A program made the translations under genes and the position numbers. Positions 2,583 through 55,400 of a stretch of 64,000 nucleotides of DNA are shown here, piece after piece. Every line of letters begins with the position of its first letter. Position 1 is the first letter of the stretch. This DNA comes from Dryococelus australis. Lineage: Eukaryota > Arthropoda > Insecta > Phasmatodea > Phasmatidae. Below the pieces are notes generated by a model. The model did not search any database and was not told where the DNA came from. It saw only the letters and a list, made by a program, of their open reading frames with translations. The stretch covers positions 291,410,966 through 291,474,965 of the forward strand of contig CM057009.1 of the NCBI GenBank assembly GCA_029891345.1, read 5' to 3'.

Positions 2583-2821
2583 TAGAGACCTCATAAATTC
2601 GCGAGTTCGACGACCTATAGGCTAGAATCTACAGTCTTATGTACGAATATGCTGATAGCTGCACATTGGTTATCTGCTGTCACTGTGGAAGGCGACAATT
2701 GGACACCGTTCTCCAGGAGGTGTCAACCATCGATGAGGACCAATGGCTTGATTTATATAAACGCCTGTGTTTTGAATTCTAGCTTGTCCCAGAATGAATC
2801 CTCGAATTCTTCAGGTCTCTA
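2583..2821 (+). mobile_element. hAT-type MITE, family A (copy A1)
   Basis: Termini TAGAGACCT and AGGTCTCTA; TTCGCG 16 bp in. Flanked by cccattga (left) and cccatcga (right), an 8-bp target duplication with one mismatch. ATTGG lies 83 bp from the left end and CCAAT about 80 bp from the right. No ORF; presumably mobilised by a hAT transposase elsewhere. Confidence 0.93.
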
Positions 2822-2996
2822 CCCATCGACAACAATTTTAATGGTTCGCACGACACTGGACACGCCTAAGGTACTGTACTGCGGTCATTACTGGCCGGCT
2901 CTCTGCCAGAGTATTTCCGAGTTGAAATTGTCCCAATCAAATATTCTTTTTTATGTATAACAGAGTACAATTCACTAAGTTCATTTGAGTACTTAA

Positions 2997-3259
2997 CAGA
3001 GACACCCGAATGTCGCGAAAAGATTTCCTCCCACGCTATACTTCGATACCCTACGGGCATACCATCAGATTTCTTTTGCTTATTAATGGCGTATGTTAGT
3101 GAGAAGATCTTCTCCTAGTTCGCTGGCCAATCACTTCAATACTGCGCGTCTGTGATTCACGTTACACGGAAACCATCGAATCACGAAAGTGGACGTGAGC
3201 TAAAGTGTTACGAAATACAATTGTTCGTGAAATCTGTTCACGAAACTCGGGCGTCCCTA
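2997..3259 (-). mobile_element. hAT-type MITE, family F (copy F2)
   Basis: Reverse copy: starts CAGAGACACCCG, ends GGGCGTCCCTA. Flanks gtacttaa and gtatttga agree at 6 of 8 positions. Contains the F interior in reverse ('gccaatcac', then 'cgaatcacgaaagtgga'). Confidence 0.85.
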
Positions 3260-3761
3260 GTATTTGACACTTTGAGTTTTGCTGGCGTATAGTTAAAAAT
3301 TGCAGAGTACCTCATGGATACAGCTGGCAAGGTAATTTTTCCTCGCGCGTATCTTCAAAGGATTCGGAATGTCGTAATTTGCGACAAACTCCACACAACT
3401 GGGTTGAATTCAGGCGACCTAGTATTGCGTTGCCAGCAGTGAGAGCGTTAATATGCAGAGGATGGTTAGAGGATGCGTCGTAGGTTCTGGACGACGTCCA
3501 AAAAACAGTTCGAAGGGAAGATCTCTATCTCTGGCGGGAGGGTTGTCTAGGGACCAGGCCGAGTTAAGTAGGTCAGAAACACATCGTCAGCAGTTCGCCA
3601 GCCGATGTTACCATTCCATCCGACGGGCAAGTGCAAAAATTCACACTAACCCTTTTATTCACACATGAACGTTAGTTTTTATGCGTTTTGACGGGTAGAT
3701 TTTTGTTCGTAACTCTACGAATATCTGCACAGCGCTCTTTCGGACGTCAAGACCAAATAAG
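3260..3761. other. Spacer, no feature recognised
   Basis: Unique-looking sequence. A 71-codon open frame at 3453-3668 has no recognisable domain and no splice context, and I leave it out as a gene. Confidence 0.5.
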
Positions 3762-4212
3762 TAGGGGGAGGAAAATTTCGCGTTTTCAACAACCTTCAGG
3801 CTGAACTTCGCTGTATTATTTATTTTGGAGGCTCATATTCGTGTTATAGGCCATTTATGGTAAAGTGAGCACTTTTTAAGGCCCTGCTAAATTTTTCCTT
3901 TCAATTAATTTCTACTTTTGCGCCACTTTTTAATGTAAAAATTGCAATATGACTAATAAACACAGTGTATACACTTCATCACTCTCAAAAGTTAATGTCT
4001 GAGACTGCAATTAAACATATTTATTAGGGGTTAATGCCTTTTGGAAGGGACTTAAAAAGTGCTCACTTTACCGGGAATAGCCTATAGTTGGCTGCTGCCC
4101 CAGCGTGTAGCGAGTTTCACATCAGACCAGGCGGCACGGGATTCGGTGCTTGTTTCCTTGCAGCGATGTTCGATGTTATTGGCTCAGGGTTTACCTGGAC
4201 GTATATAATAAT
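3762..4212 (+). mobile_element. hAT-type MITE, family D (D1), interrupted twice
   Basis: Left end TAGGGGGAGGAAAATTTCGCG. Family D interior resumes after E1 with 'ttggctgctgcccc' and runs to 'tacctggacgtat', where A2 begins. The right end is lost. This makes D1 older than both E1 and A2. Confidence 0.82.
3847..4084. mobile_element. TA-flanked MITE, family E short variant (E1)
   Basis: 238-bp variant keeping the E terminal repeats (left 'taaagtgagcacttttt', right 'aaaaagtgctcacttta') but with a different interior from the ~425-bp E copies. TA at 3845-3846 and 4085-4086. Inserted in D1. Tc1/mariner-like by its TA target. Confidence 0.88.
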
Positions 4213-4452
4213 GAGAGACCGAAGGATTAGCAGATTAATTTTGGGACAAGCTAGAATTTAAAACAAGTGCTTTCATATAACTTTGGCAACTGGTCCACAC
4301 GTCATTTGACGCCTGCTGGAGAACGGTGTCTAATTGTCGCCTTCCACTGTGACAGCAGACAACCAATGAGCAGTTGATATTGGCATATTTTTACACAAGA
4401 CTGTAGAGCCTAGCCTGCAGGTTATTGAACTCACGAATTTTTCAGATCTCTA
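4213..4452 (-). mobile_element. hAT-type MITE, family A (copy A2)
   Basis: Reverse copy with GAGAGACC start and GATCTCTA end; full interior including 'gacagcagacaaccaatg'. Sits at the broken right side of D1. Flanking 8-mers match poorly (4 of 8) in A/T-rich sequence. Confidence 0.9.
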
Positions 4453-5320
4453 CATATGATATATAATAAATAGGCACTATATTATCAGCGTTACAGTTAA
4501 GGGGACCATGTAGCTGCTCGTCCAAAGTCAAGAAGAGAAGGAGCGATTCGGGCGATAATTACACGCACGCCTAGTGCCTCATCGCTCCTACGCGCAAGGC
4601 GTGTACTGTTTCCGTCGTAACGCTGTACAGTGCAAACTAGGTTTGTAATATAGGGTTTAATTACACGCGATAAGACCACAGGTTAAACTAGGTCCGTATA
4701 TTTGTAGTTTTCTCTTGCCGCTTAAGTAAACTGCATAGGCAAGTTTTAAAAATGTAATATTTGACCATCTTCACGAATGTTTTCTCCAAGAACACATTTA
4801 ATACGACAAAAGTAAAAGAAAAAAAAAAGGACATAGATAATTGTTTTTACCTTTTCGGACAAAAAGTCGTATTTGCAGAACATTTATTTACCGAAATACG
4901 CGTTTACACGCAAACGACGATTTCACAGAAAATGTGTCATTGCGTATGACTATTAAAGGCGGCTTGGTAGCTTGGTTGATATGATAATACACGGGTGTGG
5001 AAGCAAGGATCTATGTGTTCGAATCCTAGTAACAGCAAATTTTATTTTATCTTACTGTTTTAAAATTACGTTGAATTGCACAATTTAAACATTGGCTAAT
5101 GGAAATATATTTATTTTTCTAATGATCTGGCTAAATTCAATAAAAACAATATTTAATTCGCTAAACTCAGTTGTGTGTCACTTAGGCTATTCAGACCGTG
5201 AAATTGTTACAGTGAAACAATCAGTGGTTTACACCGATTCAAAGTGGAGCAACTTTCACTGTTTTGAGTAGTTTAGTTTCACTGCCAATCAGTGATTTTT
5301 TACTAATTCTAATTTAGGGC
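4453..5320. other. Spacer, mostly unassigned
   Basis: Unique A/T-rich DNA apart from a tRNA-like stretch at 4957-5031. At 5160-5310 there are loosely inverted 'aatcagtg' / 'agtttcact' motifs that may be an eroded TIR element, but no boundaries could be set. Confidence 0.45.
4957..5031 (+). repeat. tRNA-like (possible SINE head)
   Basis: Contains an A-box-like 'tagcttggttg' and a B-box-like 'gttcgaatcc' about 50 bp apart. No cloverleaf with a proper acceptor or T stem can be drawn, so this is more likely a decayed SINE promoter than a tRNA gene. Confidence 0.3.
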
Positions 5321-5570
5321 GAGTGAAGAGATTTGGACGGCTCTTAACATCGAAGTCTTGAGAGTCGCTGAGGGTAAAGTGAGATGAGAATGGAGCAGTG
5401 CCGGAATGAAAGGGCGGGGGAAAACAGGAAATTCCCGAGAAAACCCGCCGACCAGCGGCATCGTATGGCACGAATCCCACTTGAGAAAATCTGGAGTGAA
5501 CCGGCAAGGGATTGAACTCGGTTCGCCTCGGTAAGAGACGAACCGTCTAACCGCTCAGCCAGCGTGGTCC
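5321..5570 (-). mobile_element. tRNA-derived SINE, family S (S1)
   Basis: Reverse copy. The tail (left) reads 'agatttggacggctctta'; the head (right) carries the B box 'ggattgaactcggttcg' and A-box region 'ccgctcagccagcgtgg' in reverse. Aligns along ~250 bp with seven other S copies. Pol III-transcribed type, mobilised by a LINE in trans (family knowledge). Confidence 0.85.
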
Positions 5571-5585
5571 CTCTAGTTTAGAGTT

Positions 5586-5803
5586 CACAGTATTGTCACA
5601 AAAATACAGAGGCCGCTCGCCAATCAGCGCCCGTCATCCTACATGACAGGAGGCAGCCCAGGCAATAGGAATATTTCGCAGTACGCTGTGAGCAATCAAA
5701 CACAAGATCCCGCTCCTAGATTCTCGCGCAGCCAATCAGGGAATGGGTACGCCCAGATAAAACGAACCACCACACTATTTCGTCCCTGTGTTTCTACTAT
5801 GTG
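5586..5803 (-). mobile_element. hAT-like MITE, family I (I1)
   Basis: Ends CACAGTATTG and CTACTATGTG, inverted relatives of each other; interior 'gccaatcagggaatgggt' is the reverse of the I signature 'cattctctgattggct'. Starts 15 bp from SINE S1, an association also seen at 27727 and 42024. Confidence 0.7.
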
Positions 5804-5826
5804 GAGGCGTGGCAAATGGCACAGTA

Positions 5827-6210
5827 CATAAACTAAAGATGAGGTTGACTGATATCGCTGGCTGCGCACAACCAATCTCTGTGTCCCGATATTGAACTAC
5901 TACACTGCCAACATGTTTAGCGAAAACGACATAGTTTGGATGATAGGTTGGAACACTGATATGTAAAATAGTGCTTAGAGTGGTTATTAGATGTCCACTA
6001 ACTAATTTGTAATGCAATTTGATTAAATTTAAACTGGCAAAAGTAATCTATTCATTATAAAAATGCTCGTCTTATGAAAACTGAGATATAAACAAACGTG
6101 TTAATCAGTTTTGACCATTTGATTTTGACAGATTTGTTCTTTTGGGGTAGGTCAATGTTGTGTACATGCGCAGAAGACGAATAAGCGGCCTATCTCATCT
6201 TTAGTCTATG
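5827..6210. mobile_element. hAT-type MITE, family V
   Basis: 384 bp bounded by inverted repeats CATAAACTAAAGATGAG and CTCATCTTTAGTCTATG, with an exact 8-bp duplication gcacagta on both sides (5819-5826 and 6211-6218). Single copy in the window. No transposase fragment inside. Confidence 0.9.
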
Positions 6211-6627
6211 GCACAGTATCGTCGTTTCCGTTAAGTTCTTGATAGCACGACTCTAGTTAATTTATCAGATAACCCCTTAATATTTCAAGAGTATACTCAT
6301 TCTAGTCAGGCATGTTGCACTAGAAACTAGCACAAATTTGCACACAAGGTCTGTTTTAGCGGTTTTTTTACACAGCGAAGCTCTCGTATAGTATTCAACA
6401 AAATCAGGTACAATATCCAGGCCTCAACCTTAAATATGTTTTAATTATACGCAAATTTAAAGAGCGCCTTAATTTAAGCGTAATACTTCAGCTTTAATAG
6501 TAATAACAAAATTCCAACCATATTTATAGTGAATGCCAGGATACAGTTCTAAAAATAATATGGTAAAAAAAGAAAGGTACACTATATTAATGCACCATTG
6601 CACCAAACATATACCAGGTTCTATAAG
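6211..6627. other. Spacer, nothing recognised
   Basis: A/T-rich, unique in this window, no motif or repeat assigned. Confidence 0.5.
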
Positions 6628-6853
6628 TAGAGACATGAAGAATTTGGTATAAGCTAAAAATCCAAACACGTGAGTTTGTATAACTTCAGCCATTGGTCCA
6701 CGCGGTATTTAACACCTCATGGTGAACGGTCTCCACTTGTCGCCTTCCACTGTGACAGCAAACAACCAATGTGCAATTGATATCGGCATATTTGTACATA
6801 AGTCTGTAGTCTAGCCTGCATGTCATTGAACTCGCGATTTTTTCAGGTCTCTA
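6628..6853 (-). mobile_element. hAT-type MITE, family A (A3)
   Basis: Reverse copy, TAGAGACAT to AGGTCTCTA; slightly shortened near the left end. Flanks tctataag and gctataat agree at 6 of 8. Retains 'cattggtccacg' and 'aaccaatgtgc'. Confidence 0.88.
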
Positions 6854-8098
6854 GCTATAATAATAAAGATTCAATTGTAACGCCCACTATAAGACGATTA
6901 AAACACCAAAATATATTGATCAGTGTTTGAATAAAATAATGACAATCATCAGATATATGGATATCTCTCATAGGAAATGAAAACCAGACTCTGTATTTCT
7001 AAGGCTATAAAAAACACACTGAATTAACGCACGTGTAAACCAAATGCATTAAAAATTATAAGAGATATCCTATAGTAGGAACTCACAGTTTATACACAAA
7101 GAGGCTTCAATTTGTAAAGCATCCGCTAATTATTACTTATATAATTTAGCCATAGCAAAAGACCAAACATAAATATCTTGATACAAGATTCCTGGATTCG
7201 TCGTAAAGCCTGGGACGAGGGGTCAAAACACTAATTAATCTTGCATAAATTTTGGCACTGTATTTAAAGATATTCCACATCTCAGTAATAATTCTGTAAT
7301 TGTTTTCACAAATCATACCAACGTTTACTACAATTCATGTGAACGGCAGGCGCTCATCAATCACGCACTCAATCCTTGGGTAACATTCAATAGAATTTTC
7401 CTTTTTTCACACGTTCGATACTCTGGGAAAATATATCCCTGATAATTACAACATAACAATTTTAGATGTATACACATAAAGGCATAAAATTCACTACTCT
7501 CTTCATGACACTTCCGTTCCTGACTAAGTATGAATCTAGGGGCGAATGTTTTCACACACCAACCTTAACAAAAGCAAGGCCTAAAACCAAGATAAAAGCT
7601 GACGTTATATATCATTACATTAATTAAAGACCCACGGACGTGGCGACCTTAGAGGGCCCGTCAAAGCACGTCCGACATAAAAACCTGATTAAAATAATGC
7701 ATCGAAAATTACAATAAAACCTCAATTTAAATATGGTCTACAGTTCGGAGACCAAAAAAGGTTAAGACGAGGCATGAATAATAATTAATGCAGTCCTTCC
7801 AAGGCTAGCTGTAATAAAATACACTGGAAAGCAGATTATATTTAAAAAAAACTTATCTTACGACGAGTCGTGGCAGCGGCGATACAACCAAACAGCTGGC
7901 CGGGCTAAAGTCAAATTGGGCAGCGGCGTGAAACTATTACGACTCGGAACAGGGTTTTCAATCCAAAAACATTTAGTTATAACAACCAGACTACACCAAA
8001 ACGTAATATCAAAGGTGCCAAGAAAAATATAATTTTGAAAAGGGAACTGTACACCGCTACCCTCTACAGTAAAGCAGTACTAAAAAAAAAACCATCAA
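6854..8098. other. Spacer, nothing recognised
   Basis: About 1.2 kb of A/T-rich unique sequence. Short open frames only; no TIR, SINE or microsatellite found. Confidence 0.5.
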
Positions 8099-8392
8099 TA
8101 GAGAGACCCGAATTTCGCTAAAAGATTTCACGACAAGTTGTATTTCATAACGATTTAGCTCAGATCTACTTTCGTAATTGGACGGTTTCCGCCTTACGCG
8201 TCTTTAGGTGTCTGCCCGCGAATCAAAGACGCGCAATATTGAAGTAACCTAATCCTGATTGGCCAGTTAAGTAGGAGGAGATCTTCTCACAAATACACAC
8301 CGCCAACAAGCAAAAGAAAACTGCTGGTATTCCGGTAGGATATTGCAATCTAGCATGAGCGGAAATCTATTCGAGAAATTCGGGTGCCCCTA
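8099..8392 (+). mobile_element. hAT-type MITE, family F (F3)
   Basis: TAGAGAGACCCG to GGTGCCCCTA with 'tttcgctaaaag' and 'tattcgagaaatt' near the ends. Flanks accatcaa / gccatcaa match at 7 of 8. ATTGG at position 79; a mutated CCAAC about 88 bp from the right end. Confidence 0.92.
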
Positions 8393-9086
8393 GCCATCAA
8401 AATACAAGCAAAATTTGGCCTTAATTATTATAGACTCGTTCATGTCCACGACTCGCCGTTGCCATCCTTCTTCCTATGTGGTTCCATTTCAAAAATAAAG
8501 CTGTTAATGGACCACATCTCTGTTTCAATGGCCTGGTGCGGTAAAATATCATTCTGATTTCGTTACGCCGGATGCTATACTACGAAGCAGCAATTAATAT
8601 GAAAAGTGAAGGTCTTGACGATATGGAAACTACCAGAAACCGCGGTGCTACTGTCTCAATGTTGCATGATACGTGAATCATGGTCGGTACAGTGCAATTC
8701 CAGAAGCTAGCATCAATAGGAACAGCGCCTTCGCCTGGGCATTGCTGACAGTTAGTGCTGGCACATCACCATTTTTAAATTCTGTTTTATTTCTGTGCCA
8801 TGAAACTATTTCAATAGGTTTCAAAGTGTCAGTTGGTGTGTGCAAATCTTAAATATATTTCGCACCACAAAACTCTTATTTTGCAACAACTAAAACGAAC
8901 AATTATGTGTACGTTAATCGGTTAAACTATTCTCGCGAACAAATTTTATGTCACCAACTGTCATTGGAGGGCTTGTAGTGGTGGCACTTGATACGCGTTA
9001 AAGAGAGGTCTTTTGAGGGATATTTGACATTACATTCAAAACACATGCAGACTAGTTTGCTTGTAGCTTTTTTTTTAACTTATAAA
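8393..9086. other. Spacer, nothing recognised
   Basis: Moderately A/T-rich, no repeat shared within the window, no coding signal. Confidence 0.5.
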
Positions 9087-9320
9087 AAGAGACCTGAAAC
9101 ATTCGCGGATTCATTTTGGGACAAGCTAGAATTCAAAACACGTGCGTTTATATAACTTCAGCCATTGGTCCACATGACACCTCATTGAGAACGGCGTCCA
9201 ATTGTCGCCTTCCACTGTGATAGCAGACAACCAATGTGCAGTTGTTATCGGCACATTTGTACATAAGACTGTAGAGTCTAGCCTGTAGGTCATTGAATTC
9301 GCGAATTTTTTAGGTGTCTA
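9087..9320 (-). mobile_element. hAT-type MITE, family A (A4)
   Basis: AAGAGACCTG to AGGTGTCTA; flanks cttataaa / cctataaa match at 7 of 8. Complete reverse copy with a small deletion after 'ggtccacatg'. Confidence 0.92.
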
Positions 9321-9741
9321 CCTATAAATAACAGTAATTATTGGTTATGCGATGTTACTATACTAAGAGGACATTCACATTAATACTACATTGCTAACAA
9401 CGCACTTGATTCCAAAGCTAATCTCACTTTATCCAGTGTAAATTCAATGTCCAAGGAAGGGGCTTAAGCCCACTCAGCACTTCCCCCTCCCCCCCCTCCA
9501 ACACCGAACTCCAGTTTCATTACAGTATGAAGTTAACTGCTATGCACATCAGCTCTCTTCGCGCGAATCAGTAAATTTTAGTTCGGAATAACTTTATAAT
9601 GATTGGCCCACTCGTGAAAGAAAATGTCTTCTTGGACAGAAAAACTGCAAGCAATCCGAAGTTAAGCTGCAGGTATGCACGTCTGTGATCGATGTCTGGT
9701 CTGCGTGTTAACACTTTTCGTGAAAAACAGGTGACATAGCT
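9321..9741. other. Spacer with eroded F/K-like end
   Basis: A C-rich run at 9482-9499. From about 9600, 'tgattggcccactcgtgaa' and then 'cgtgaaaaacaggtgac' near 9720 resemble the right half of F/K elements, too diverged to delimit. Confidence 0.4.
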
Positions 9742-20487: not shown

Positions 20488-20915
20488 TAAGGATAGGAAA
20501 ATGTCTCAAGTTCATTGACCTGTAGGCTGTACTCCACAGTCCTGTGTACACTCGAGCCTCAAATTGTTGTTCAATGGCTGCTGCCCCGGAGAGTAGCCGG
20601 AGTTACTCTACACCTTGGTGCCGACCTCCCATGGCGCAGTCGGTTAGTGCGCCACCGATTTGGGGTGCGGGAGGCTCTGGTTTCGAATCCCCGGATAAGG
20701 CATGGGTGCTCATTTAAGTTAGGTTCTAAGTTAGTCAATGCAATTTACACCTGGCAGTATGGAACTCACTATTTGTTTCATTGCAAGTCTGCTATTGGCT
20801 CTAAGTCGTCCAGGGCGTGTCTAATGAACTGTATTCCAATTTTAAATGTGACTTCAGCGTACACGTATTGGACGTCTATCATGTCCTGAAATATTCGCGA
20901 AATTTTCCTATCCCT
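20488..20915 (+). mobile_element. hAT-type MITE, family D (D2) carrying a SINE
   Basis: TAAGGATAGG to CCTATCCCTA; flanks gtaataag / gtaataaa match at 7 of 8. Interior is typical D ('ggctgctgcc', 'tattggctctaagtcgtcc') apart from the tRNA-like insertion at 20615-20741. Confidence 0.93.
20615..20741 (+). mobile_element. Short tRNA-derived SINE, type U
   Basis: ~127 bp inserted in D2. A-box-like 'tggcgcagtcggttagtgcg' and B-box 'ggtttcgaatcccc' in tRNA-like spacing. Imperfect target duplication around 'ctctacacc' / 'atttacacc' on the two sides. Differs in sequence from S and T. Confidence 0.75.
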
Positions 20916-20990
20916 AGTAATAAACTAGTGCTTCAGGCCCAACTATAAAGATGTGCACGCTCTTACGATTCACTTTAGACCATAGGTATT

Positions 20991-25332: not shown

Positions 25333-25629
25333 TAGGGCCTCCTGATTTTCGCGAAAATATTACGGGGCTGTTGTATTCCAAAACTTTAGAGATCATATCC
25401 ACTTTCTTGACTGGATGACTTTAACTGTCGCACGTTGTAGATGTCTGGCCGCGAATCACGGACGCTCACGGTTGGAGATAGTTATTTCTGGCTGGCCTAG
25501 TCAGGTAAGGAACTGTCTTTCGACAAATACATGTGGCCAATAACCAAAGGAAATATGAATTTATGCCATAGGACATTGGAGTCTATCTAGCCTTCGCGGA
25601 GATCTTTTCGCGAAAAACAGGTGGCCCTA
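25333..25629 (+). mobile_element. hAT-type MITE, family K (K1)
   Basis: TAGGGCCTCCTGATTTTCGC to 'ttttcgcgaaaaacaggtgg' plus CCCTA. Exact 8-bp duplication ccaattac on both sides. CCAAT near the right end preserved ('ggccaataacc'). Young by its flanks. Confidence 0.95.
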
Positions 25630-26165: not shown

Positions 26166-27209
26166 CAGGCTGGTCGGAAAGTTCCCTTACAAACTCCTAG
26201 GACTTGTGGAGGGGACTAGGTAGAGTGTCTTTTGAATAGGAACCCATGTCCGGAAACGTACTGTCTCCGTGCTACAGTCATTTTTAATCAGGTGTATCCC
26301 TCGTCGCTTTCCGCTGAGGGGAAAAGCAATGTCTCGGATGCGTCTGGGTTGGTATGCAACCGGGTAGGCCGTACAATACTTAAGGCAATCACCTGATGGC
26401 ACGCGACGTCGACCCTGTCTTGAGCCCATTCCACGTGCCTTTGTGTCTCCGGTTGAGTACACGTTTACGGAATACACAGACACGATTCTTGTGTATGGCA
26501 CAGCTGAAGGTAATGAATGGCAGAGCAGCTCGTTGGCAGTATCAAGAGCGTTATACACAACGTGCGACACCATCGCATACCCTTTTTGCCACAGTTACGC
26601 AACGGCTCCGAGAACAAGGTACCTACATCGCTGACAGGAACGACTGTGGTGCTTCAAAGAGGCGCCGCACTCCCGAATTGGAAGAGGCTGTACTGCATCA
26701 CGTTGAACAGAGCCCGTCAGCGAGTACGCGAACAATTGCGCGTGCAATGGGTGTTGCTCCCAGCATAGTCTGGGAGGTTCTGCATGAGCAACAACTACAT
26801 CTCTACCACCTCCAAAGGGTACATACAGTCTTTGAGTCCAGCCGATGTTGCACCACGTGCTGACTTCTGCACGTGGTTCCTCCATCGTTGCACCGACGAG
26901 CCCGTTCCCACGTCATGTTCTGTCCACATATGAATCTAAATTCTCTAGGAACAGTGTTATAAATTCTCGAAACAGCCATGTGTGTGCAAACGAAAACCCT
27001 AATACCACGAATGTCCAGGGGTTCCAGCACATATTTTCTATCACTGTGTGGGCAGGTATTCAGGACGGTCATGTGTCAAATACCTGATTTGAAATGGCTG
27101 CAGCACGGAAATTGTATGTTTCCGTACATGGGTTCCTATTCAAAAGATCATCTAATCAGTCCCTTCTACAAGCCCTAGGAGATTGTGAGAGGAATTTCCG
27201 ACCACTCTG
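26166..27209 (+). mobile_element. Tc1/mariner-superfamily transposon with internal deletion
   Basis: 1044 bp bounded by ~110-bp imperfect inverted repeats (left CAGGCTGGTCGGAAAGTTCC, right ends 'aatttccgaccactctg'; inner parts share 'gaataggaacccatgt'). TA at 26164-26165 and 27210-27211. It holds the first part of a transposase gene only. The coding remnant runs straight into the right inverted repeat, which implies loss of the catalytic C-terminal part. Confidence 0.92.
26440..27086 (+). pseudogene. Mariner-type transposase pseudogene, C-terminally truncated
   Basis: Begins near VEYTFTEYTDTILVYGTAEG (26456-26515), shifts frame, then continues through a helix-turn-helix region (LEEAVLHHVEQSPSASTRTI, ~26680-26740; AMGVAPSIVWEVLHEQQ). 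Another shift leads to FSITVWAGIQDGH near 27035-27070, after which a stop comes at 27085. The position of the first catalytic Asp reads STYESKF, with Tyr in place of Asp (codon 26929-26931). The other two acidic residues are absent. Not functional; useful only as a source of inverted repeats for an active relative. Confidence 0.85.
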
Positions 27210-29910: not shown

Positions 29911-30205
29911 TAGGGACTGGATAATTTCGCGTTTTGAACGACCTCTGTGCTAGACTCCACGCTGCTGCGTGTTTTAAAGCCTAAGCTCTCTGTTCATTGG
30001 CTGCTGCCTCAGTGCGAAGCCAATTTTACCTCAGAGCAGGTGGCACGGGATTCTGTGCTTGTTTGCTTGCAGGTCTGTTATTGGCTCATTGTTCACCTGG
30101 GCGTGTCTAATAAACTGTGGTCCAATAGAAAACGTGACTAAAATGTACACGTATTTGGAGTCGCCGTTGTTCTGAAATTTTATTCGCGAAAATTTCCGGT
30201 CTTTA
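29911..30205 (+). mobile_element. hAT-type MITE, family D (D6)
   Basis: TAGGGACTGGATAATTTCGC to 'tttccggtcttta'. ATTGG at position 86, a second ATTGG mid-element, CCAAT 80-84 bp from the right end. Flanks agree at 5 of 8. B2 inserted immediately beyond its right flank. Confidence 0.92.
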
Positions 30206-30213
30206 GTTATGAG

Positions 30214-30496
30214 TAGAGATCTGAGAAATTCGCGAGATCATTAACCTGTAAGCTAGACATCACAGTAAAATATAATCTCATACAAATATCAACTGTTTAT
30301 TGGTTGATTGTTGTGGTATTAAATAGAGGTGATGGGGGGGGGGGGGGGGCACAATTTATTGCGTGTTTCTTATTGGCTCATTTATTTCCAGGAGGTGTCA
30401 AACAACACGCCGACCAATTACAAAATTAACATGAACGTACATGTGTGTGAATTCCAACTTGCCTAGAAATGAACCCGCGAAATTCTCGGGTCTCTA
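30214..30496 (+). mobile_element. hAT-type MITE, family B (B2)
   Basis: TAGAGATCTGAGAAATTCGC to 'aattctcgggtctcta'. Exact 8-bp duplication gttatgag on both sides. An 18-bp G run at 30331-30349 interrupts the interior. Among the youngest insertions here. Confidence 0.95.
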
Positions 30497-42252: not shown

Positions 42253-42256
42253 TTAT

Positions 42257-42464
42257 AGGGACACCAGATTTTGGCGAACAAAAATTTGCGACCAGATGTA
42301 TTTCATAACACTTGAGCTCAGATCCACGTTCCTGATTGGATGATATAGATATGCGCCTTAGGTTTCTGCACGTGAACCACAGACGTGCAATATCGGAGTA
42401 ACCCAATTCTAATTGCCCAGTCGAGAAAGAAAATGTCTTCTCACAGCGACACGCCACCAATAAC
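42257..42464 (+). mobile_element. hAT-type MITE, family F (F5), truncated by G1
   Basis: TAGGGACACCAGATTTTGGC through 'cgacacgccaccaataa', where G1 has inserted; the right third is missing. Confidence 0.85.
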
Positions 42465-42472
42465 TTATTGGT

Positions 42473-42765
42473 AGAGATGATGGTTTACCGCGAGAAAATT
42501 TGACTGTTTGCCAGGATTCAACGTACTCTACACATGCCCATAAGTTTTCTTTATTTGATGGCTGCCGTGCATGTGTGAAGCTACTACCCGATATCACTGC
42601 GTCTATGAGGATTGTGATGCAATAAGGCAGAACATTCGTGATTGGTATGCAAACAACTAGGCCGAAACAAAATCTTGCTCATCCAATCACAAAAGAATAA
42701 ACTTGCTACAGTGTTATCAAAGACTTGACGGCTCAAAAAATTCTCACGATTTTCCATAATTTCTT
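42473..42765 (+). mobile_element. hAT-type MITE, family G (G1)
   Basis: TAGAGATGATGGTTTACCGCG to 'acgattttccataatttctt'. Exact 8-bp duplication cttattgg at 42465-42472 and 42766-42773. CCAAT 79-83 bp from the right end. Confidence 0.94.
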
Positions 42766-43593: not shown

Positions 43594-43889
43594 TAAGGGT
43601 ACCTTTTATTTAGCTAAAAGATTTCGTGACAAGCTGTGTTCTAAAACACTTTAGTTCATAACCGCTTTCGTGATTGGATCGTTTGAATTGTAACGCGTCT
43701 TATCTGTCCGCCAGCGAATCACGGACGGTTAGCATGGGAAATACTTAATTGTGATTCGTTCACTCACGTAACAGACTGTATTCACACAAAGACAAGCGGC
43801 CAATAGCCAAATGAACACTACAAGTGTGCACATAGGTTATCGAAGTCTAGACTCTGCGTAAATCTTTTCGCGAATAACTGGTTGCCCTA
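43594..43889 (+). mobile_element. hAT-type MITE, family K (K3)
   Basis: TAAGGGTACCTTTTATTTAG to 'cgcgaataactggttgccct' plus A. Flanks cacattca / cacatgca match at 7 of 8. ATTGG at position 80; CCAAT 86-90 bp from the right. Confidence 0.92.
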
Positions 43890-45125: not shown

Positions 45126-45337
45126 TAACAAAACCCGTTACGAAAAATATTTAAATTTCAAAATAAGTGTTTGGGACTTTTATTTTTACCTTCCAGAAAA
45201 CTGAGATGTAATTTCAGTAACAAATATACAAATAGTTTTAGGCCATGCAATGAACAATTTTTTTTTTTTGTTTGAGACGGTCCTTATATTGGTGTACTGC
45301 TATGACATACATCGGTGCAAATCAAAATGTTATTTGT
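43890..45337. other. Repeat-poor spacer with TA microsatellite
   Basis: A/T-rich with poly(T) at 44316-44330; a 65-codon frame at 44621 is unconvincing. Confidence 0.45.
45044..45123. repeat. (TA)n microsatellite
   Basis: About 80 bp of TA with two interruptions, preceded by a short TG run. Confidence 0.97.
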
Positions 45338-45630
45338 AGGGACATCCAAATTTCGCAAAAATATTTCACGACCAGTTGTATTTCATAACACTTTAGCTCC
45401 CCTCTACTTTTGTGATTTGGTGCTGTAGATGTTACGCGTCTTAAGTGTCTGCTCACGAATCAGAGATGTACAGAATCGGAGAAACTTAATTCTGATTGGT
45501 CAGTTAACTAAGAAAATGTCTTCTCAAAGACATACGCCGCCAATAAGGAAAAGGAATCTGCTGGTACGCTGGTAGGGTGTTGAAATATAGCGTGTGCAGA
45601 AATATTTTTACCAAACTCGTGTGTCCCTAG
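45338..45630 (+). mobile_element. hAT-type MITE, family F (F7)
   Basis: TAGGGACATCCAAATTTCGC to 'aactcgtgtgtcccta'. Flanks gttatttg / gttatttt match at 7 of 8. Best reference for the F consensus. Confidence 0.94.
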
Positions 45631-48395: not shown

Positions 48396-48414
48396 GTCAT
48401 AGGTCCTAATATTA

Positions 48415-48840
48415 AAGGTTATTCAAGATAAAGTAAGCACTTTTGAAATCAACCTTAGTAAAAAGTCACTGCCCATACCTGGATATATTTTGACGGGCGC
48501 ACTGAGTGACATGCGCCCAGTAAAGTTGATAACGATGGATGGGAAGCAGTTACATATCTTAACGTAGAATAAAAAGTGTTAGGTAACCATTTGTGACGAC
48601 TTGAATTATTTCTTTCGCCTTCTGTTTATTTTTTTTAATGCATCCAAGTATTAAAATGTACAGATTTGTAAAATATTTTATTTTATAATAACATCAGATA
48701 TTCACTTGACCGACACGTGAATAAAGTGACGAGGCCAATGACAATGTTAATATTGCATAAGGCGGAAGAATACACTACGTGCATACAAGTATATCTTAAG
48801 CAAGGCTTTCGAAAGTACTCATTTTACCATGAATAGCATA
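48415..48840 (-). mobile_element. TA-flanked MITE, family E (E6)
   Basis: Reverse copy from AAGGTTATTCAAGATAAAGT to 'tcattttaccatgaatagca'; TA on both sides. Interior in reverse order of E4. Confidence 0.92.
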
Positions 48841-48841
48841 T

Positions 48842-49331
48842 ACCTATGTGTCCCTCGAGGCAAACTTAGTATATATACAAACTCTCTGATAATCTACAAG
48901 GTTGAGTAGCGGACATCCAAGTGCAACACTTAAAAATTAAAAATAATAACCGTAATAATAGGGAAATGAAACCGCCTGATTCCCTCGCTACGACAGCGCG
49001 GGCAAAACGTGCGGAGAATGCATGGACTAAATTCCTGGACACGGTCGACCTGAAAATGCTCAGGGCATATTAGATGTGCTTTGCGCTCCTCTTAATTGAA
49101 ATAGTTCTGCTCTATTGTTCCAAAAACCGAATACATAATATGAGGACGTAATTAATGAAGCTTACTAATTTCGAGCCAAATCTATCCCAATTTGCAATCT
49201 CACTCGTAATGAATACCAGTACGGAGGCGTAAAAAAGTTGTTTCTGACATAAAAGTTTATGATCTTTCCAAAATGTAGTGAGCCTTAAACGTGAATCTTT
49301 GTAGCTTTTCTCAGAGTCAGTCTGCATGCAC
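48842..49331. other. Spacer, nothing recognised
   Basis: Unique sequence. Confidence 0.5.
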
Positions 49332-49903
49332 TTATTGTCCGTTTCAGACCCACTTTAATTTAAGGCCCACGGTTGCTAAGGGGTTAGCCTGCTCGCCTCC
49401 CAACAAGGCGATCCGGGTTTAATTCCCCCTTCCGGGTCACTCCGGACTTTCACATGCGGGAATCGTGCCGGACGATGCCGTTGGTCGGTGGCTTTTCTCG
49501 GGGATCTCCCGTTTCCCCCGCCCCTTCATTCTGGCGCTGCTCCATACTCACCTCGATCCCCCTCATCGGCTCTGAAGACCTCGATGTTAAGAGCCGCCCA
49601 AATCTCTAGACTCACTCACTCACTTTAATTTACGGTTACACGTGTTTAAAAAAATATTATGATGTGCGCTGTACTGAGGTCTACAAGAAACTTATTTTGT
49701 TATCACTGCCAATGAGCTGTATACCAGATGTTTGGATACAGTAATATGAACCAATTATGACATAGACCATTAAGGCGGTTTGCGAATCATTTACCCGTAG
49801 GTAATATCATTGGTCCTAAACTTCGCAGTGTGCAGTACAGACCAAAATTTAATTACACGTCGGTAGTGTACACAATTGTGTACACTGGGTCTGAATGGGT
49901 TAA
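49332..49903 (-). mobile_element. piggyBac-type (TTAA) MITE, left copy, split by SINE S6
   Basis: Inner end '...ctgaatgggttaa' is the inverse of TTAACCCATTCAGACCC at 50102. Outer end 'ttattgtccgtttcagaccc' is a decayed TTAACCC-type terminus. Without S6 and its duplication it is ~300 bp and matches the right copy in inverted orientation along its whole length ('gaatcattta', 'gtgcagtacagaccaaaa'). Class inferred from the TTAA/CCC ends. Confidence 0.8.
49363..49620 (+). mobile_element. tRNA-derived SINE, family S (S6)
   Basis: Exact 12-bp target duplication cactttaattta at 49351-49362 and 49621-49632. Head 'ggttgctaaggggttagcct' and 'ccgggtttaattcc'; body and tail typical. Inserted in the TTAA MITE. 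Confidence 0.95.
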
Positions 49904-50101
49904 GTTATAATTTAGAATTCATTCAGTTTACGATGAGAAAAAATTCGGATATAGAAACGATATATAAGGCAGCATAAGCAATGCAGTTTATTTCAAATTT
50001 ACGAAAATAATTTATTAGAAACTGATTTAAGGTAACCATTAATTACAAAATCAATCAATATTGGGACAACACACAATTCCACGTAGTAACTTTTTGTTAA
50101 T

Positions 50102-50402
50102 TTAACCCATTCAGACCCAGTGTACACAATTATGATCATTACGCACGTGTAGGTAATTTTTGGTCTGTACTGCACACTGTGAAGCTGAATGGCCAATGTT
50201 CGTACATGTGGATAAATGATTCGCAAACAATTTTACAGATCTAGGTCATAATTGGTTCATATTACTGTAGCCGAACATATATCCTACATCTCATTGGCTG
50301 TGTCAAAGAAACAAGTGTTGTTTCGACTTAAGTACAGCACGCATCATAACATTTTTTTACAACGCCTTAAACCGTAATTTAAAAGGTTCCGAAGGGGTTA
50401 AT
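50102..50402 (+). mobile_element. piggyBac-type (TTAA) MITE, right copy
   Basis: TTAACCCATTCAGACCCAGT to 'aaggttccgaaggggttaa', 301 bp, TTAA at both ends. Head-to-head with the 49332-49903 copy, ~200 bp apart. No coding capacity. Confidence 0.85.
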
Positions 50403-50975
50403 AACTGTAATCTGTGATAACTTTATTATTTCCGAATGAGCAGAACTGCACATTGTCTAAATGAAAATCGAAGTGCCATTATGTTGAAGCATGTTTCATT
50501 GCACTTCAGTCTACATTACTTTTTTTCCCACAAAATATTTACGAACAAACGCCACTCCTCTCTTGGAATTCGCCGGAATTTTACAAAAAGGATAATCGGT
50601 CACGGTTAAGTCATGGATACCATAACGAAGCCAAGGAGGGTTTCGATGAAAAATTGCAGTGACAGCCGAAACTTCACTGTAAATGTTTTACTCTAAGATT
50701 TCTAAACAGTAGAATAAAGTTTTTTAAACTGTACATATCATGGAAAACTTACCACACGTCCGGTTGTAAATATAGAAGCGCTATTTTACACAGTTCGGAA
50801 CTTGACGACAGATTTGCCTCTTTCCTGAACAACCGTAGCAAATCTGCCCCGGACGGATGGTGAGAAAAACTTCTCCATTTTTGTCTAAGTATGGGTATTC
50901 AAAGATGTGGTAACATTTTTAGACTGTTTGTAACATGTTTGTTATATCAACGATGTATTAGATGACGAGATGACT
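50403..50975. other. Spacer, nothing recognised
   Basis: Unique sequence with short frames only. Confidence 0.5.
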
Positions 50976-51262
50976 AGAGAAACCCGATTTTCGCGAAAAG
51001 AATCCCACGGAAGCTAGATATCAATATCGTACTTGAACACCTGCAGTTTTCCTTCATTTATTAGTCGCGTCCCTTCGTCGAAGACAGTGTGGTCTTCGAC
51101 TGGGCCAATGAGCGCTAAGTGACTCCGTTAGTGAACTTCTGTGATTAGCGGGCAGGCTCACGAGGCGCCCATCAGTTGAAACCATCCATTTGCTATAGTG
51201 GATTTGAGTGCAAGTGTATAGAAATAAAACTTGACAAGTCATCTTTTCGCGGAAATTAAAAT
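50976..51262 (-). mobile_element. hAT-like MITE, family Q (Q2)
   Basis: TAGAGAAACCCGATTTTCGC and 'cttgacaagtcatcttttcg' near the right end; 'gactgggccaatgagcgc' shared with Q1. Confidence 0.7.
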
Positions 51263-51539
51263 ACCACTGTTATGTACGTGCATTTCTTCCGAACCATACT
51301 CTCCTTTTGATAGTCCAACCCTTATTATTGGCTGTGGTGCGTGTTGCCCACCTGTCAGGTGTAAGTATCATTTTGAAATTAAAACACGTATTTCTCGAAA
51401 ACGGCTATGCTTAATTTGTGTGTAAACTTCATCGTTAATTGTGCCATGCGAATTACTAATCCATCATTCAAATACCAAATATGATACCGCGTCGTGGAGG
51501 TTAGTTCGAAATAAGGGTATTTCATTCACATGACATAAT

Positions 51540-51812
51540 TAGATATGATGGTTTTATAGCGGGAAAAATTAACTGTTTGTTAGGATTCAACGTACTGTAC
51601 ACAAGTTCCGGCAGTTTTATTTCCTTAGTGGCTGACATGCACTCACTGGACAAATGAGGATTTTGATAGTATAATGCAGAACGTTCGTGATTGGTCTGCA
51701 AGCAACTTAGCCAAGTCAAACCATGTTCATATAATCATGAAAGAATAAATTAGCTAGAGTGTTGTAGAAAATATGCTGGCTCAAAATATTTTGCGGTTTT
51801 CCACTATCTGTA
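51540..51812 (+). mobile_element. hAT-type MITE, family G (G6)
   Basis: TAGATATGATGGTTTTATAG to 'gcggttttccactatctgta'. Flanks gacataat / gatataat match at 7 of 8. Both CCAAT boxes near the ends are mutated, unlike G1. Confidence 0.92.
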
Positions 51813-51828
51813 GATATAATTTGATGAC

Positions 51829-51995
51829 AGCGGCAGGTGTTAAGGTGTTTGCAAATCTTTGTTCAGTTACCCATTATCCAGTCTCTCAGTGTTCCATTTG
51901 AAATATTTTCAGTAAACTGTGCTTCAGGTCCAACTTCAAAGACATATACCGTCCATACGATTCACTTTAGACCATCTTTATAAAAAAAGATCCCG
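51829..51995 (+). repeat. Dispersed repeat W (W2), uninterrupted
   Basis: Collinear with W1 (20377-20990) but without the D2 insertion, reading straight through 'ttttcagtaaactgtgcttc'. Confidence 0.72.
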
Positions 51996-52593
51996 ATAAA
52001 CTTCTTAAACTGAGGCTGAAGCCTCAAGTTACACCACTTACCATATACAAAAGTAAATAAAAATATTTTAAAAAAATATGGGTAAAGGTTTGGCTTTCAA
52101 TCAAAATTGGTTACTAAAAAAAGAAAAAAATGGATTGAAGGGTTAACCTAAAGTGCAACAAACAGGCGCACTAAGTCGAATGAAAATAATTTGTTACAAA
52201 ATTATACACAGATATATAATTTAGTTTCTTTGATATATAATTTTACATAGTGACAACCGCTGCCTACACTTCCAGCTTAACTCCCACTCTCTTTGTCACG
52301 TGCACCCTCCTTCCCAGGCGGTAGCGCGACGTACGGCATACGCGAGAACTCTCACGCTTTAAAGGAGCGCCCACAAACATTTGCACGCAAATAACCTTAT
52401 AGATTATACATCAAAACATGAGCAGCTGATTAAGTAATAAAATACTACATTAATAAAACTGTATAATAAACAAAATATTACAAAATTACATAGTTATATA
52501 AAATCCAAAGAACATACAATGCAAATATATGTGTAGACTCATTTATATGCAACAGCCAAAGAACTGGGCAAGCATCGCAGAAGGCCCTGTGCA
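51996..52593. other. Spacer, nothing recognised
   Basis: A/T-rich with a GC-richer patch at 52270-52370. Confidence 0.5.
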
Positions 52594-52835
52594 TGGAGAC
52601 CTGAAATATGCGCGAGTTAAATGACCTGTATGCTAGAGTCTACAGTATTATGTACAGATATGTCGATATCAGCTGTATATTGGTTGTCTGATAGCACAGT
52701 AGAAGTCAACGATTGGCCCAGCATTCTCCAGGAGGTGTCAAACACAGTGTGGACCAAGGGCTGAAGTTATATAAACACATGTGTTTTGAATTCTGGCTTG
52801 TCCCAAAATGAATCCGCGAATTTTTCAGGTCTCTA
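52594..52835 (+). mobile_element. hAT-type MITE, family A (A10)
   Basis: TGGAGACCTGAAATATGCGC to 'gaatttttcaggtctcta'. Flanks cctgtgca / cctatgaa agree at 6 of 8. Confidence 0.92.
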
Positions 52836-52888
52836 CCTATGAAGATAAAGCCCTCGTCTAAATGATGACCCGTCACATGTTGAAACAT

Positions 52889-53140
52889 TGGGTGGTATGG
52901 TGGTTAGACTACTCGCCTCCAACCAAGGTTGACCAGTTTCGATTATCGGCAGGGTAACCCGGATTTTCGAATGTGGCAATCGTGCCGGACGATACCTCTG
53001 CTCGGTGGGTTTTCTCGGTAATCTCCCTTTTCCCATGCCCTTTCATTGCGGCGCTGCTCCAAACTAACCTCGCTTCACCCTCATTGGCTCTGAAGACCTC
53101 GATGTTAAGAGCCGCCCAAATCTCTTCACTCACTCTACTC
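52889..53140 (+). mobile_element. tRNA-derived SINE, family S (S7)
   Basis: Head 'ggtatggtggttagactact' and 'agtttcgattatcgg'; body 'caatcgtgccggacgatacc'; tail ends in 'cactcac' repeats. B box is mutated. Confidence 0.88.
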
Positions 53141-53274
53141 ATTCACTCACATTTATACCAAGCTAAATTTCAAACAATAATTGCTGGGCTTTTTAATGTA
53201 CACAAATATATTTGACCCGCGGAGCGGTGGAGCGAGTTCACATGGGCGGGTCTAATAAACTGTGATAATTACGG

Positions 53275-53830
53275 GCCCCTGTTATTCGCGAAAAGAGTCC
53301 ATGACTAGATTTTCTCCAAAAACTTAACATCTGATCCACTTTCCTGAGTGGGTGACCTTACTTGCAATCTTTCTAGCTGCCTCCCCATAGGTAATGGACG
53401 AGTAGTATCGGAGTAACTTAATTCTGATTTGCACAATAGGGCAAAAATATGTTCTCACCAAGACACGTGGCTGATATCTAGGGATTGTGAAATTTCGCGA
53501 GTTCAATTACCTGTTCGCTAGACACTTCAGTCGTGTTTACATTCAAACCTCAGATGTCTGTTCATTAGCTGCTGCCCCAGAAAGTAGCCCGTGTTTCTCC
53601 ACACTCAGCAGTATGTCACTCGCTACTTGTTTCCTTGTAAGTCTGCTATTGGCTCAGAGTCGTCCAGGGCGTGTATAATGAACTGTGATCCAATTGCAAA
53701 GGTGACATCAGTGTACACGTAGAGGACGCCTATCGTGTCCTGAAATGAATTGGCGAGATGTTCCTATCCCTACCGATAACCAAAGTAGAGCGGTAGATAT
53801 ACACATAGGTACTGGAATCTAAACCTGAGT
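53275..53830 (+). mobile_element. hAT-type MITE, family K (K6), split by D4
   Basis: 'gggcccctgttattcgcgaa' to 'aagacacgtggctgatatc', then after D4 'ccgataaccaaagtagagcg' to 'actggaatctaaacctgag'. Right terminus not found. Confidence 0.72.
53479..53772 (+). mobile_element. hAT-type MITE, family D (D4), nested in K6
   Basis: TAGGGATTGTGAAATTTCGC to 'gatgttcctatcccta'. Flanks ctgatatc / ccgataac match at 6 of 8, and both correspond to the one K sequence 'gccaataacc', as expected of a duplication. Confidence 0.92.
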
Positions 53831-53879
53831 CAGTGGTGTCAATAAGGATACTTATTTTACTTAATTTTGAGGTAATGAG

Positions 53880-54171
53880 CAGGGGCACCTGTTTTTCCCG
53901 AAAAAAATTCCGGACAAGTAAGACTCCAAAACACTAGTTAAGAATCACTTTCGTGGTCCGATCATTTGAACTGTTTCACGCCTTCTCTCTTTGCCCGCGA
54001 ACTACAAACAGTCATTATAGTAGAAACTTAACTCTAACTGACCCACTCATGTAGCAGTCAGTTTTAACGCAAAGACAGGCGGCCAATTGCCAAAGGAAGT
54101 TGGCAAGTGCACATGTAGGATATTGAGCCTAGCCTCCAAGTAAATATTTTCACGAAAATCAGGTGACGCTA
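53880..54171 (+). mobile_element. hAT-type MITE, family K (K5)
   Basis: CAGGGGCACCTGTTTTTCCC to 'cacgaaaatcaggtgacgct' plus A. Flanks gtaatgag / gtcatgag match at 7 of 8. Confidence 0.93.
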
Positions 54172-54301
54172 GTCATGAGCTGTTTACTGGCTAATCAGTG
54201 AAAAGCAGTAAGTTTTTACTGCCAGGCCAGTGCAGTTCACTAGGCATCAGTAGCAATCACTGTTTAATTAATCATTGAATAGGAGCAACCATAATTCTCA
54301 A

Positions 54302-54546
54302 TAGATTTTTACCTGAAACATTCACGAGTTCAGTGACCTGCAGGCTAGACTCTACAGTCTTATGTACAAAAATGTAGATATCAACTGCACATTGGTTGTC
54401 TGCTGTCACAGTGGAAGGCAACAATTGGACACCTTTCTCCATGAGGTGTGAAACACCGTGTGGATCAATAGCTAAAGTTATATACACGCATGCCTTTTGA
54501 AGTCATGCTTGTCACAAAAAGCATCGGCGAACTTTTCACGTCTCTA
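54302..54546 (+). mobile_element. hAT-type MITE, family A (A11)
   Basis: TAGATTTTTACCTGAAACATTC to 'gaacttttcacgtctcta'. Interior intact; flanks agree at 5 of 8. Confidence 0.88.
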
Positions 54547-54804
54547 ATTTTTACTGATTCAAGTTGAGCAGTTGCAGCAGATCTGAAGTCAAACACGCTG
54601 ATTTCAAGCAGTTTAAATTGTTTGTTTTTGAGTAAAGCCTATCTGTAAATATTTTCGCAAAAAAAAAAACTGGTGGTTCTAGTGACACAGTTGCAGACCT
54701 AACAGAAATGTGAACGTGTTTCAAGTCTAGCTTGTTCTGAAGTGAATTCACGTAGTGTATAAGGATCTGAACGCCCAGCCAGTGACCTCGACAAAGACAA
54801 TCCA

Positions 54805-55400
54805 TAGAGTTGATGGAAAATCGCGAAAATTTTTTGAGCCAACATATCTTCTATAACACTCTAACTAGTTTATTCTTTCATGATTGGATGGACAAAGTTT
54901 TGAGTCGACTAATTTGTTCGCAGACCAATCACGAACGTGCTATCTTAAGGCCCTGTCACACTGTCAAATTTTTCCTTCGAACTGCTTCCAATAAGTTTGA
55001 TCAACTATAGATTGACAATTATGACGTGATCAAAATATCATAAACGATACTGATTGAGTGAGACCGTCAAACTTCAGAGAAATTTTAGAAACGGAAATGT
55101 TTGATGAAAACTGACGCCATCCAACTTTCTCGGCTAAATGTGGAGGTATTTATATTAATTTTGATGACATCATAATTGTCCATCTATAGTTAATCAAACT
55201 TATTGGAAGTAATTTGACGGAAATATTTGATAGTGTGACAGGGGCTTTATAGTATCAGAATCCTCGTTGGCACAGTGAACTCGGGTTGTAGCTTCATACA
55301 TGCATGGTAGCCAATATGGAAAGAAAACTGTCGGACATGTGTACAGTGCGTTGAATCCTACCAAACAGCCAACTTTTCCCGCGATAAACCATCATCTCTT
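54805..55400 (-). mobile_element. hAT-type MITE, family G (G3), split by J
   Basis: TAGAGTTGATGGAAAATCGCG to 'gcgataaaccatcatctctt'. Flanks acaatcca / acagtcca match at 7 of 8. J occupies 54947-55246. Confidence 0.93.
54947..55246. mobile_element. PIF/Harbinger-like MITE (element J) inside G3
   Basis: 300 bp, ends AGGCCCTGTCACACTGTCAA and 'gatagtgtgacaggggct', inverted for ~90 bp (both arms hold 'aataagtttgat.aactatag'). TTA at 54944-54946 and 55247-55249. G2 shows the unoccupied site ('gacttaaggcaaccgaatc'). Confidence 0.9.

What the first reader, a model, noticed from the sequence alone, without database searches (positions are those of the whole stretch)
2583..55400. Inverted CCAAT boxes ~80 bp from each end in several MITE families
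Seen directly: ATTGG starts 79-86 bp from the left end (A1 2665, B2 30299, D6 29996, F3 8177, K3 43673). CCAAT lies about 77-91 bp from the right end (A1 2740, B2 30414, D6 30122, F7 45540, K3 43800, G1 42683). Interiors of the families otherwise differ, and two 5-mers at mirrored positions in so many families is not expected by chance. Inference: either a subterminal binding site for a shared hAT transposase (hAT enzymes are known to bind short subterminal repeats) or captured NF-Y-type promoter boxes. If the latter, each insertion would seed a CCAAT box.
Basis: partly seen in the sequence, partly recalled or inferred. Interest (0 to 1): 0.75.

Follow-up and report, generated by a model that had tools for sequence, protein, structure and literature searches.

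The report
Paired CCAAT boxes in transposon ends
Several short jumping-gene families in what looks like a stick insect genome carry the same CCAAT box at the same fixed distances from both ends, which suggests that a DNA-binding protein, perhaps one of the host's own, uses these sites to help the elements move.

Summary
All 11 coordinates are right. The elements are MITEs (consensus 241-294 bp) with TAGRG tips and 8-bp target duplications, hAT-like. I built consensuses for eight families (145 copies). One end carries ATTGG with its outer base at bp 85-86 (8 of 8 families); the other at bp 78-79 (7 of 8; family M reads ATTGA). F, K and J are drawn in reverse. A second, inverted CCAAT lies 41-46 bp further in (bp 131 or 119-121) in seven families; N keeps all four boxes. 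Of 25 CCAAT/ATTGG words in the eight consensuses, 23 sit at these places; shuffles give 0.15 on average, at most 3. The families share descent, so the position is inherited. Yet the box, with TCGCG, is the best-kept block (cross-group identity 1.00 and 0.96, against 0.40 and 0.43 from column 51 on), so I infer selection for keeping it. Purines at -2 (21/23) and +2 (22/23) fit NF-Y; C at +1 (6/23) does not. I favour a cis-acting end site for mobilisation, read by host NF-Y or by the transposase. No partner transposase was found among 40 of 150 hits examined; no binding was tested.

The parts
2583..2821 (+). MITE A1; boxes ATTGG 2665, ATTGG 2698 (inner), CCAAT 2740; TSD CCCATTGA/CCCATCGA
30214..30496 (+). 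MITE B2; boxes ATTGG 30299, ATTGG 30372 (inner), CCAAT 30414; TSD GTTATGAG on both sides
29911..30205 (+). MITE D6 (tips set by eye, no clean TSD); ATTGG 29996 (bp 86), ATTGG 30080 (inner), CCAAT 30122 (outer base 80 from right)
8099..8392 (+). MITE F3 (79-end on the left); ATTGG 8177 (bp 79), ATTGG 8258 (inner); right box reads CCAAC
45337..45629 (+). MITE F7; ATTGG 45495 (inner), CCAAT 45540 (86-end); left box reads ATTTGG; TSD GTTATTTG/GTTATTTT
43595..43889 (+). MITE K3 (79-end on the left; left tip degenerate, start extrapolated); ATTGG 43673, CCAAT 43800
25333..25629 (+). MITE K1; CCAAT 25537; left box reads ACTGG; TSD CCAATTAC on both sides
42256..42463 (+). F-type element broken by element N; ATTGG at 42335 (bp 80)
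42472..42765 (+). MITE N; boxes at bp 86 (GATGG in this copy), R121 (ATTGG 42641) and R79 (CCAAT 42683); TSD CTTATTGG on both sides
20488..20916 (+). D-type element (429 bp, with an insert); inner ATTGG 20794, CCAAT 20836; TSD GTAATAAG/GTAATAAA

Best explanation
These are related non-autonomous, hAT-like MITE families that share one end design, read from each tip inward: TAGRG tip, TTCGCG at about 16-21, a GCTAGA.TTCA-like block near 38-48, ATTGG at bp 86 (one end) or bp 79 (the other), and an inverted CCAAT 41-46 bp further in (about four helical turns). The boxes are cis-acting sites that a source element needs to be mobilised, so amplified masters keep them while the sequence around them drifts. 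The protein I think most likely to read them is the host CCAAT factor NF-Y, acting as a sequence-specific DNA-bending, chromatin-opening helper that lets the transposase synapse the ends. Shown: positions, inverted symmetry, retention, flank preferences. Inferred: the need for mobility, NF-Y as reader, the bending or synapsis role.
For: Consensus positions 85-86 in 8/8 and 78-79 in 7/8 families. 23 of 25 CCAAT/ATTGG words at four places (within 1-2 bp); 1000 shuffles mean 0.15, max 3. Cross-group identity of box columns 1.00 (86 end) and 0.96 (79 end) against 0.40 and 0.43 from column 51 on; five of five box columns invariant at the 86 end against 2 of 61 others. Flanks of the 23 words: purine at -2 in 21, at -1 in 17, at +2 in 22. 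PMC6843132 (passages): all five CCAAT bases are mandatory for NF-Y, common preferences are purine -1, C +1, purine +2, and NF-YA initiates DNA bending with 25/30 nt contacted. Hermes, a hAT, needs at least ~220 bp of both ends in cells; mutating its left-end BED sites beyond bp 50 left ~70% activity, and the authors propose a cellular factor, naming DNA-bending proteins as examples (PMC10368747, section 16 and passages).
Against: C at +1, a preferred NF-Y base, occurs in only 6 of 23; purine at -1 fails in 5 of 7 outer79 boxes; T, which PMC6843132 says mammalian NF-Y selects against in flanks, stands at -1 in 5 of 23 and at +1 in 3 of 23. A at +5 is present in 15 of 15 outer boxes (20 of 23 overall), beyond the flanks named for NF-Y. 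The families are few and share descent, so counts are not independent. The orientation of F, K and J was first chosen from the box distances (supported by the GCTAGA block), and the four places were defined on the same data, N excepted. The 79-end retention alone is weaker: 7 of 56 other columns there are invariant, and column shuffling reaches it in 3% of trials. M lacks the 79 box in its consensus. Five families with a hAT dimerisation domain and a visible 3' tip have no such box at 70-95 bp (L130 has an ATTGG at 115), so it is no general hAT need. No partner transposase found; no occupancy data.
Confidence: 0.48

Rival explanations
1. The boxes are subterminal recognition sites of the lineage's own transposase, extended to about CCAATNRNNAAA at the outer sites, and part of the end-complex geometry.
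For: Near-fixed distance to the tip with few indels and inverted symmetry at both ends. A at +5 in 15/15 and AAA at +5..+7 in 10/15 outer boxes, beyond the flanks named for NF-Y. The Hermes transposase binds short subterminal repeats, AAG(T/C) (PMC10368747).
Against: The invariant core is exactly the NF-Y pentamer with mostly NF-Y-like flanks; inner boxes lack the AAA extension (0 of 8). The same ends carry other conserved blocks (TTCGCG, GCTAGA) of unrelated sequence. Five hAT families of the genome lack the box. Partner transposase unknown.
Confidence: 0.32
2. The boxes are leftovers of the transposase promoter of the autonomous parent and do nothing in mobilisation.
For: CCAAT is a classical promoter box and element ends often hold the transposase promoter (general knowledge). 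The A consensus has TATATAAA starting 10 bp after its 79-end CCAAT (sequence).
Against: Boxes are kept at both ends and inverted, while a promoter is needed at one end only; they are kept in non-coding MITEs over family divergence. The TATA-like word was seen in A only, by eye.
Confidence: 0.1
3. Plain common descent without function: the families are young enough that a few words survive by chance.
For: Ends are homologous; families match one another by BLAST.
Against: Columns from 51 on are down to 0.40-0.43 cross-group identity while the box stays at 0.96-1.00; TCGCG does as well or better, and GCTAG reaches 0.93 at the 86 end. Column shuffles of the seven-family alignment reach the box score in 0.0002 (86 end) and 0.03 (79 end) of trials.
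Confidence: 0.1

Closest known systems
Hermes (hAT) transposon ends
   Same: terminal inverted repeats with a need for sequence well inside the tips, and an unidentified internal feature in cells (PMC10368747)
   Different: Hermes repeats are AAG(T/C), many and asymmetric between ends; here two inverted CCAAT boxes per end at near-fixed places. Hermes ends were not searched for CCAAT here.
Tol2, Tag1 and Ac/Ds ends (hAT)
   Same: 100-200 bp per end needed for movement of Tol2 and Tag1 (passage); Ac transposase binds repeats (AAACGG, recalled)
   Different: no fixed pair of CCAAT boxes is known to me there (recalled, not searched)
NF-Y bound CCAAT boxes of promoters
   Same: CCAAT core with purine flanks (preferences from PMC6843132)
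   Different: here tied to transposon tips at near-fixed distances in inverted pairs 41-46 bp apart
Transposons with DNA-bending helpers (Tn10 with IHF, Mu with HU)
   Same: proposed role: a host bending protein at a subterminal site (examples named in PMC10368747)
   Different: the helper here is only inferred

Membership tests
hAT superfamily, non-autonomous (MITE) | 8-bp target site duplication | tested here: met
   35 of 125 copies 8/8 and 35 more 7/8 identical, tips allowed to slide by up to 4 bp; random pairing of flanks 1.35 per 125; the other 55 copies do not show it
hAT superfamily, non-autonomous (MITE) | terminal inverted repeats with a [T/C]A[A/G]NG tip | tested here: met
   TAGRG ... 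CYCTA in the eight consensuses (trimming looked for such tips); that this tip marks hAT is recalled
hAT superfamily, non-autonomous (MITE) | mobilised by a hAT transposase (shared ends with an autonomous element) | tested here: inconclusive
   3' flanks (0.8-1.3 kb) of 40 of the 150 listed PF05699 hits fetched; none was judged to carry these ends; the other 110 were not looked at; other superfamilies with 8-bp duplications not tested
hAT superfamily, non-autonomous (MITE) | short and without coding capacity | tested here: met
   consensuses 241-294 bp; two ORFs of 150 aa or more in the window, neither inside the elements listed in parts
NF-Y binding site | intact CCAAT core | tested here: met
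   8/8 and 7/8 outer boxes and 8 inner boxes in the consensuses
NF-Y binding site | flank preferences: purine -1, C +1, purine +2 | tested here: inconclusive
   17/23, 6/23, 22/23
NF-Y binding site | occupied by NF-Y in vivo | not testable with these tools
   no chromatin data
NF-Y binding site | NF-YA gene in the host | not tested
   search with PF02045 not answered; NF-Y genes said to be conserved in all eukaryotes in PMC6843132
Hermes-type subterminal repeat (AAG(T/C)) | clustered AAG(T/C) repeats near the tips | not tested
   only seen by eye as ACTT in some GCTAGACTTC blocks

The most novel reading that the evidence does not exclude
A lineage of hAT-like transposons has made the host histone-fold factor NF-Y an obligate architectural partner: two inverted NF-Y sites per end, about four helical turns apart, bend and open the subterminal DNA for synapsis. 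NF-Y or a like factor would then be the missing cellular feature postulated for hAT ends, and each of thousands of insertions would plant up to four CCAAT boxes in the host genome.
Probability: 0.35. Interest if true: 0.85.

Novelty: new variant of a known kind. Interest (0 to 1): 0.6.

Why it matters
[quoted passage not shown] A lineage in which the same five bases stay at two places per end, across families that are otherwise hard to align, gives a concrete four-site target for mutation and a named candidate protein. It would also mean that high-copy MITEs (first-look candidates 1,924 to 5,094 per family query, most not scored) spread CCAAT boxes through the genome, which bears on regulatory evolution.

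Tried and rejected
A generic TIR/TSD scan without a tip rule gave 103 hits against 79 in reversed sequence: too noisy; the tip-anchored scan gave 15 against 3. Of the 15, 12 belong to the families treated here; the other three (L009:6119-6757, L026:2674-2950, L015:5744-6550) do not. The first has no box near its ends; the second has a CCAAT 79 bp from its left tip, in the opposite sense to our boxes, and none on the right; the third was not examined. Partner transposase: 3' flanks of 40 of the 150 PF05699 hits; a loose tip pattern matched strings in 9 of the 40, none with TTCGCG plus a matching tip by eye; BLAST with the seven consensuses found only 15-24 bp matches, the best of them F and B boxes against L142 (E 0.009 and 0.03), where the word reads ATTGC about 102 bp from the tip; set aside as chance. 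Partial ends without a mate in the fetched loci were not followed further. Independent capture of the boxes was rejected because the place is the same across families. Families D and De (2 full copies each) were dropped from consensus building; copies covering under 80% of the query or too near a locus end were dropped too. Copies come largely from the best 40 scored hits per query, so copies close to the query are over-represented. Two of the 25 words, K at bp 47 and J at bp 139, lie off the four places. Literature: searches; the combinations CCAAT box+hAT+MITE (20), NF-Y+hAT+transposase (46), NF-Y+transposon ends+host factor (71) and CCAAT+MITE+NF-Y (72) listed 1, 1, 0 and 5 papers, none on this by title and start of abstract; only open-licence papers are held. 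Opened: PMC10368747 (passages, section 16) and PMC6843132 (passages). The abstract of PMC10268593 was seen in part in a listing.
Full report
Where we are. The window lies in a 3.415-Gb genome of 646 contigs. Contig C4 has 262,277,254 bases and is the fifth largest of the contigs whose lengths I saw, after C1, C2, C3 and C17. The abstract of PMC10268593, as listed, gives 3.42 Gb, scaffold N50 262.27 Mb and L50 5 for the stick insect Dryococelus australis. I take that as the species; it is an inference from those numbers.

Checking the claim. Each of the 11 positions carries the stated word. The elements are real: A1, B2, F7 and K1 have 8-bp duplications with at most one mismatch. A tip-anchored scan, blind to the boxes, found 15 candidates in 264 kb against 3 in reversed sequence; 12 of the 15 belong to the families treated here.

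Families. I took copies from the window, the 20 stretches of 10 kb, the loci and targeted fetches of listed hits (places; letters) and built consensuses for A (21 copies), B (16), Db (13), M (11), F (26), K (24), J (14) and N (20), 145 in all. D and De had two full copies each and were left out.

Positions. Outer base of ATTGG from one tip: 86 in A, B, Db, M and N; for F, K and J the mirrored word lies 86, 85 and 86 from the right tip. From the other tip: A 78; B, Db, N, F, K and J 79; M reads ATTGA there. A second block, GCTAGA or a near form of it at about bp 39, matches best when the ends are paired this way, which supports the orientation independently of the boxes.

Inner boxes. Reading inward, a CCAAT follows at bp 131 in F, K and N (86 end) and at bp 119-121 in A, B, Db, J and N (79 end). 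At the 121 place F and K read CGAAT and M CCAGT, one base off; at the 131 place A, B, Db, M and J have no CCAAT. N keeps all four. Spacing between outer and inner box is 41-46 bp, in inverted orientation.

Statistics. In 125 copies of seven families 98 have the 86 box, 88 the 79 box, 70 both; shuffles give 2.07, 1.85 and 0.05 on average. With N, over 145 copies, the four places (86, 131, 121, 79) are filled in 114, 58, 64 and 106, with the limits used. In the eight consensuses 25 such words occur, 23 at the four places; 1000 shuffles give 4.50 words on average (at most 11) and 0.15 at the places (at most 3).

Descent or constraint. The families are related: BLAST joins A-B and F-K over their length, and B-Db, J-M and others at their ends. 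So a shared position is inherited. But in the eight-family alignments, cross-group identity from column 51 on is 0.40 (86 end) and 0.43 (79 end), while the box stands at 1.00 and 0.96; five of five box columns are invariant at the 86 end against 2 of 61 others, and four of five at the 79 end against 7 of 56. Among 5-column windows, only TCGCG equals the box at the 86 end or exceeds it at the 79 end. In the earlier seven-family version the column-shuffle value was 0.0002 and 0.03, so the 79 end alone is weaker evidence. Within families the boxes are also a little better kept than other CpG-free windows (mean percentile 0.73, 19 of 23 above the median).

What reads them. Flanks of the 23 words: purine at -2 in 21, -1 in 17, +2 in 22; C at +1 in 6, T at +1 in 3; A at +5 in 20 and in 15 of 15 outer boxes; AAA at +5..+7 in 10 of 15 outer and 0 of 8 inner boxes. 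PMC6843132 (passages) names purine -1, C +1 and purine +2 as shared NF-Y preferences, each CCAAT base as mandatory, and T in the flanks as selected against by mammalian NF-Y. So core and most flanks look like NF-Y; the misfits are the outer79 boxes (purine at -1 in 2 of 7), the few C at +1, and the +5 A. The +5 A and the near-fixed distances would suit the transposase. I lean to NF-Y because the one invariant word is exactly the NF-Y pentamer; this is a judgement, not a test.

Controls from other transposons. Of 150 PF05699 hits listed I fetched the 3' flanks of 40. None was judged to have these ends. Five families whose CCCTA- or CTCTA-type tip could be seen (L115 group, L122/L144, L128/L130, L142, L124) have no CCAAT or ATTGG with its outer base at 70-95 bp from that 3' tip; L130 has an ATTGG at 115. 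Their 5' ends were not seen. Two elements with other tips (L009:6119-6757, L026:2674-2950) lack the design too, though the latter has one CCAAT at bp 79 in the other sense. The design thus looks lineage-specific, and the mobilising enzyme is unknown. The elements are hAT-like by tip and duplication only.

Link to an open question. For Hermes, at least ~220 bp of each end is needed in cells; mutating the left-end BED sites beyond bp 50 left about 70% activity, scrambling the left end after bp 50 or 140 left no or little mobility, and the authors speak of an as-yet-unidentified feature and hypothesise a cellular factor (PMC10368747, section 16 and passages). A pair of sites for a DNA-bending factor at each end is the kind of feature they ask for. 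That these boxes play this role is my inference.

Noticed in passing
MITE families A, B, Db, M, F, K, J; 35 perfect target duplications: Positions 4-5 of the 8-bp duplication are AT in 35 of 35 perfect cases; the pattern is mostly NYYATRRN. A very strict target preference.
   Followed up: partly
L009-L028 against window: The MITEs are unevenly spread: ends were found in 6 of 20 stretches of 10 kb (L012, L019, L020, L021, L026, L028), while the 64-kb window holds dozens.
   Followed up: no
families' ends, about bp 16-21 and 38-48 from each tip: Two further conserved blocks, TTCGCG and GCTAGA.TTCA-like, are shared by most ends; TCGCGA resembles the ZBED1/DREF BED-finger site (recalled; listing only).
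   Followed up: partly
window 20488-20916: D-type MITE with an inserted stretch that looks tRNA-like (GGCGCAGTCGGTTAGTGCGCCACC...GGTTTCGAATCCCCG), by eye.
   Followed up: no
window 29911-30496 and L012:326-926, L012:7083-7887: MITEs of different families sit side by side or a few bases apart, as if one tip were a preferred target for the next.
   Followed up: no
window 42256-42765: Element N has inserted next to the CCAAT box of an F-type element, whose remainder is missing.
   Followed up: partly
window 54947-55247: Inverted-repeat element with 90-bp arms, 88% complementary, and CCCTGTCACAC-like ends. Two partial matches to element N (54813-54947 and 55244-55399) flank it, as if it sat inside an N copy.
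   Followed up: no
window 26396-26863: 155-aa ORF resembling the DUF4817-type helix-turn-helix of insect mobile elements (name recalled, not searched).
   Followed up: no
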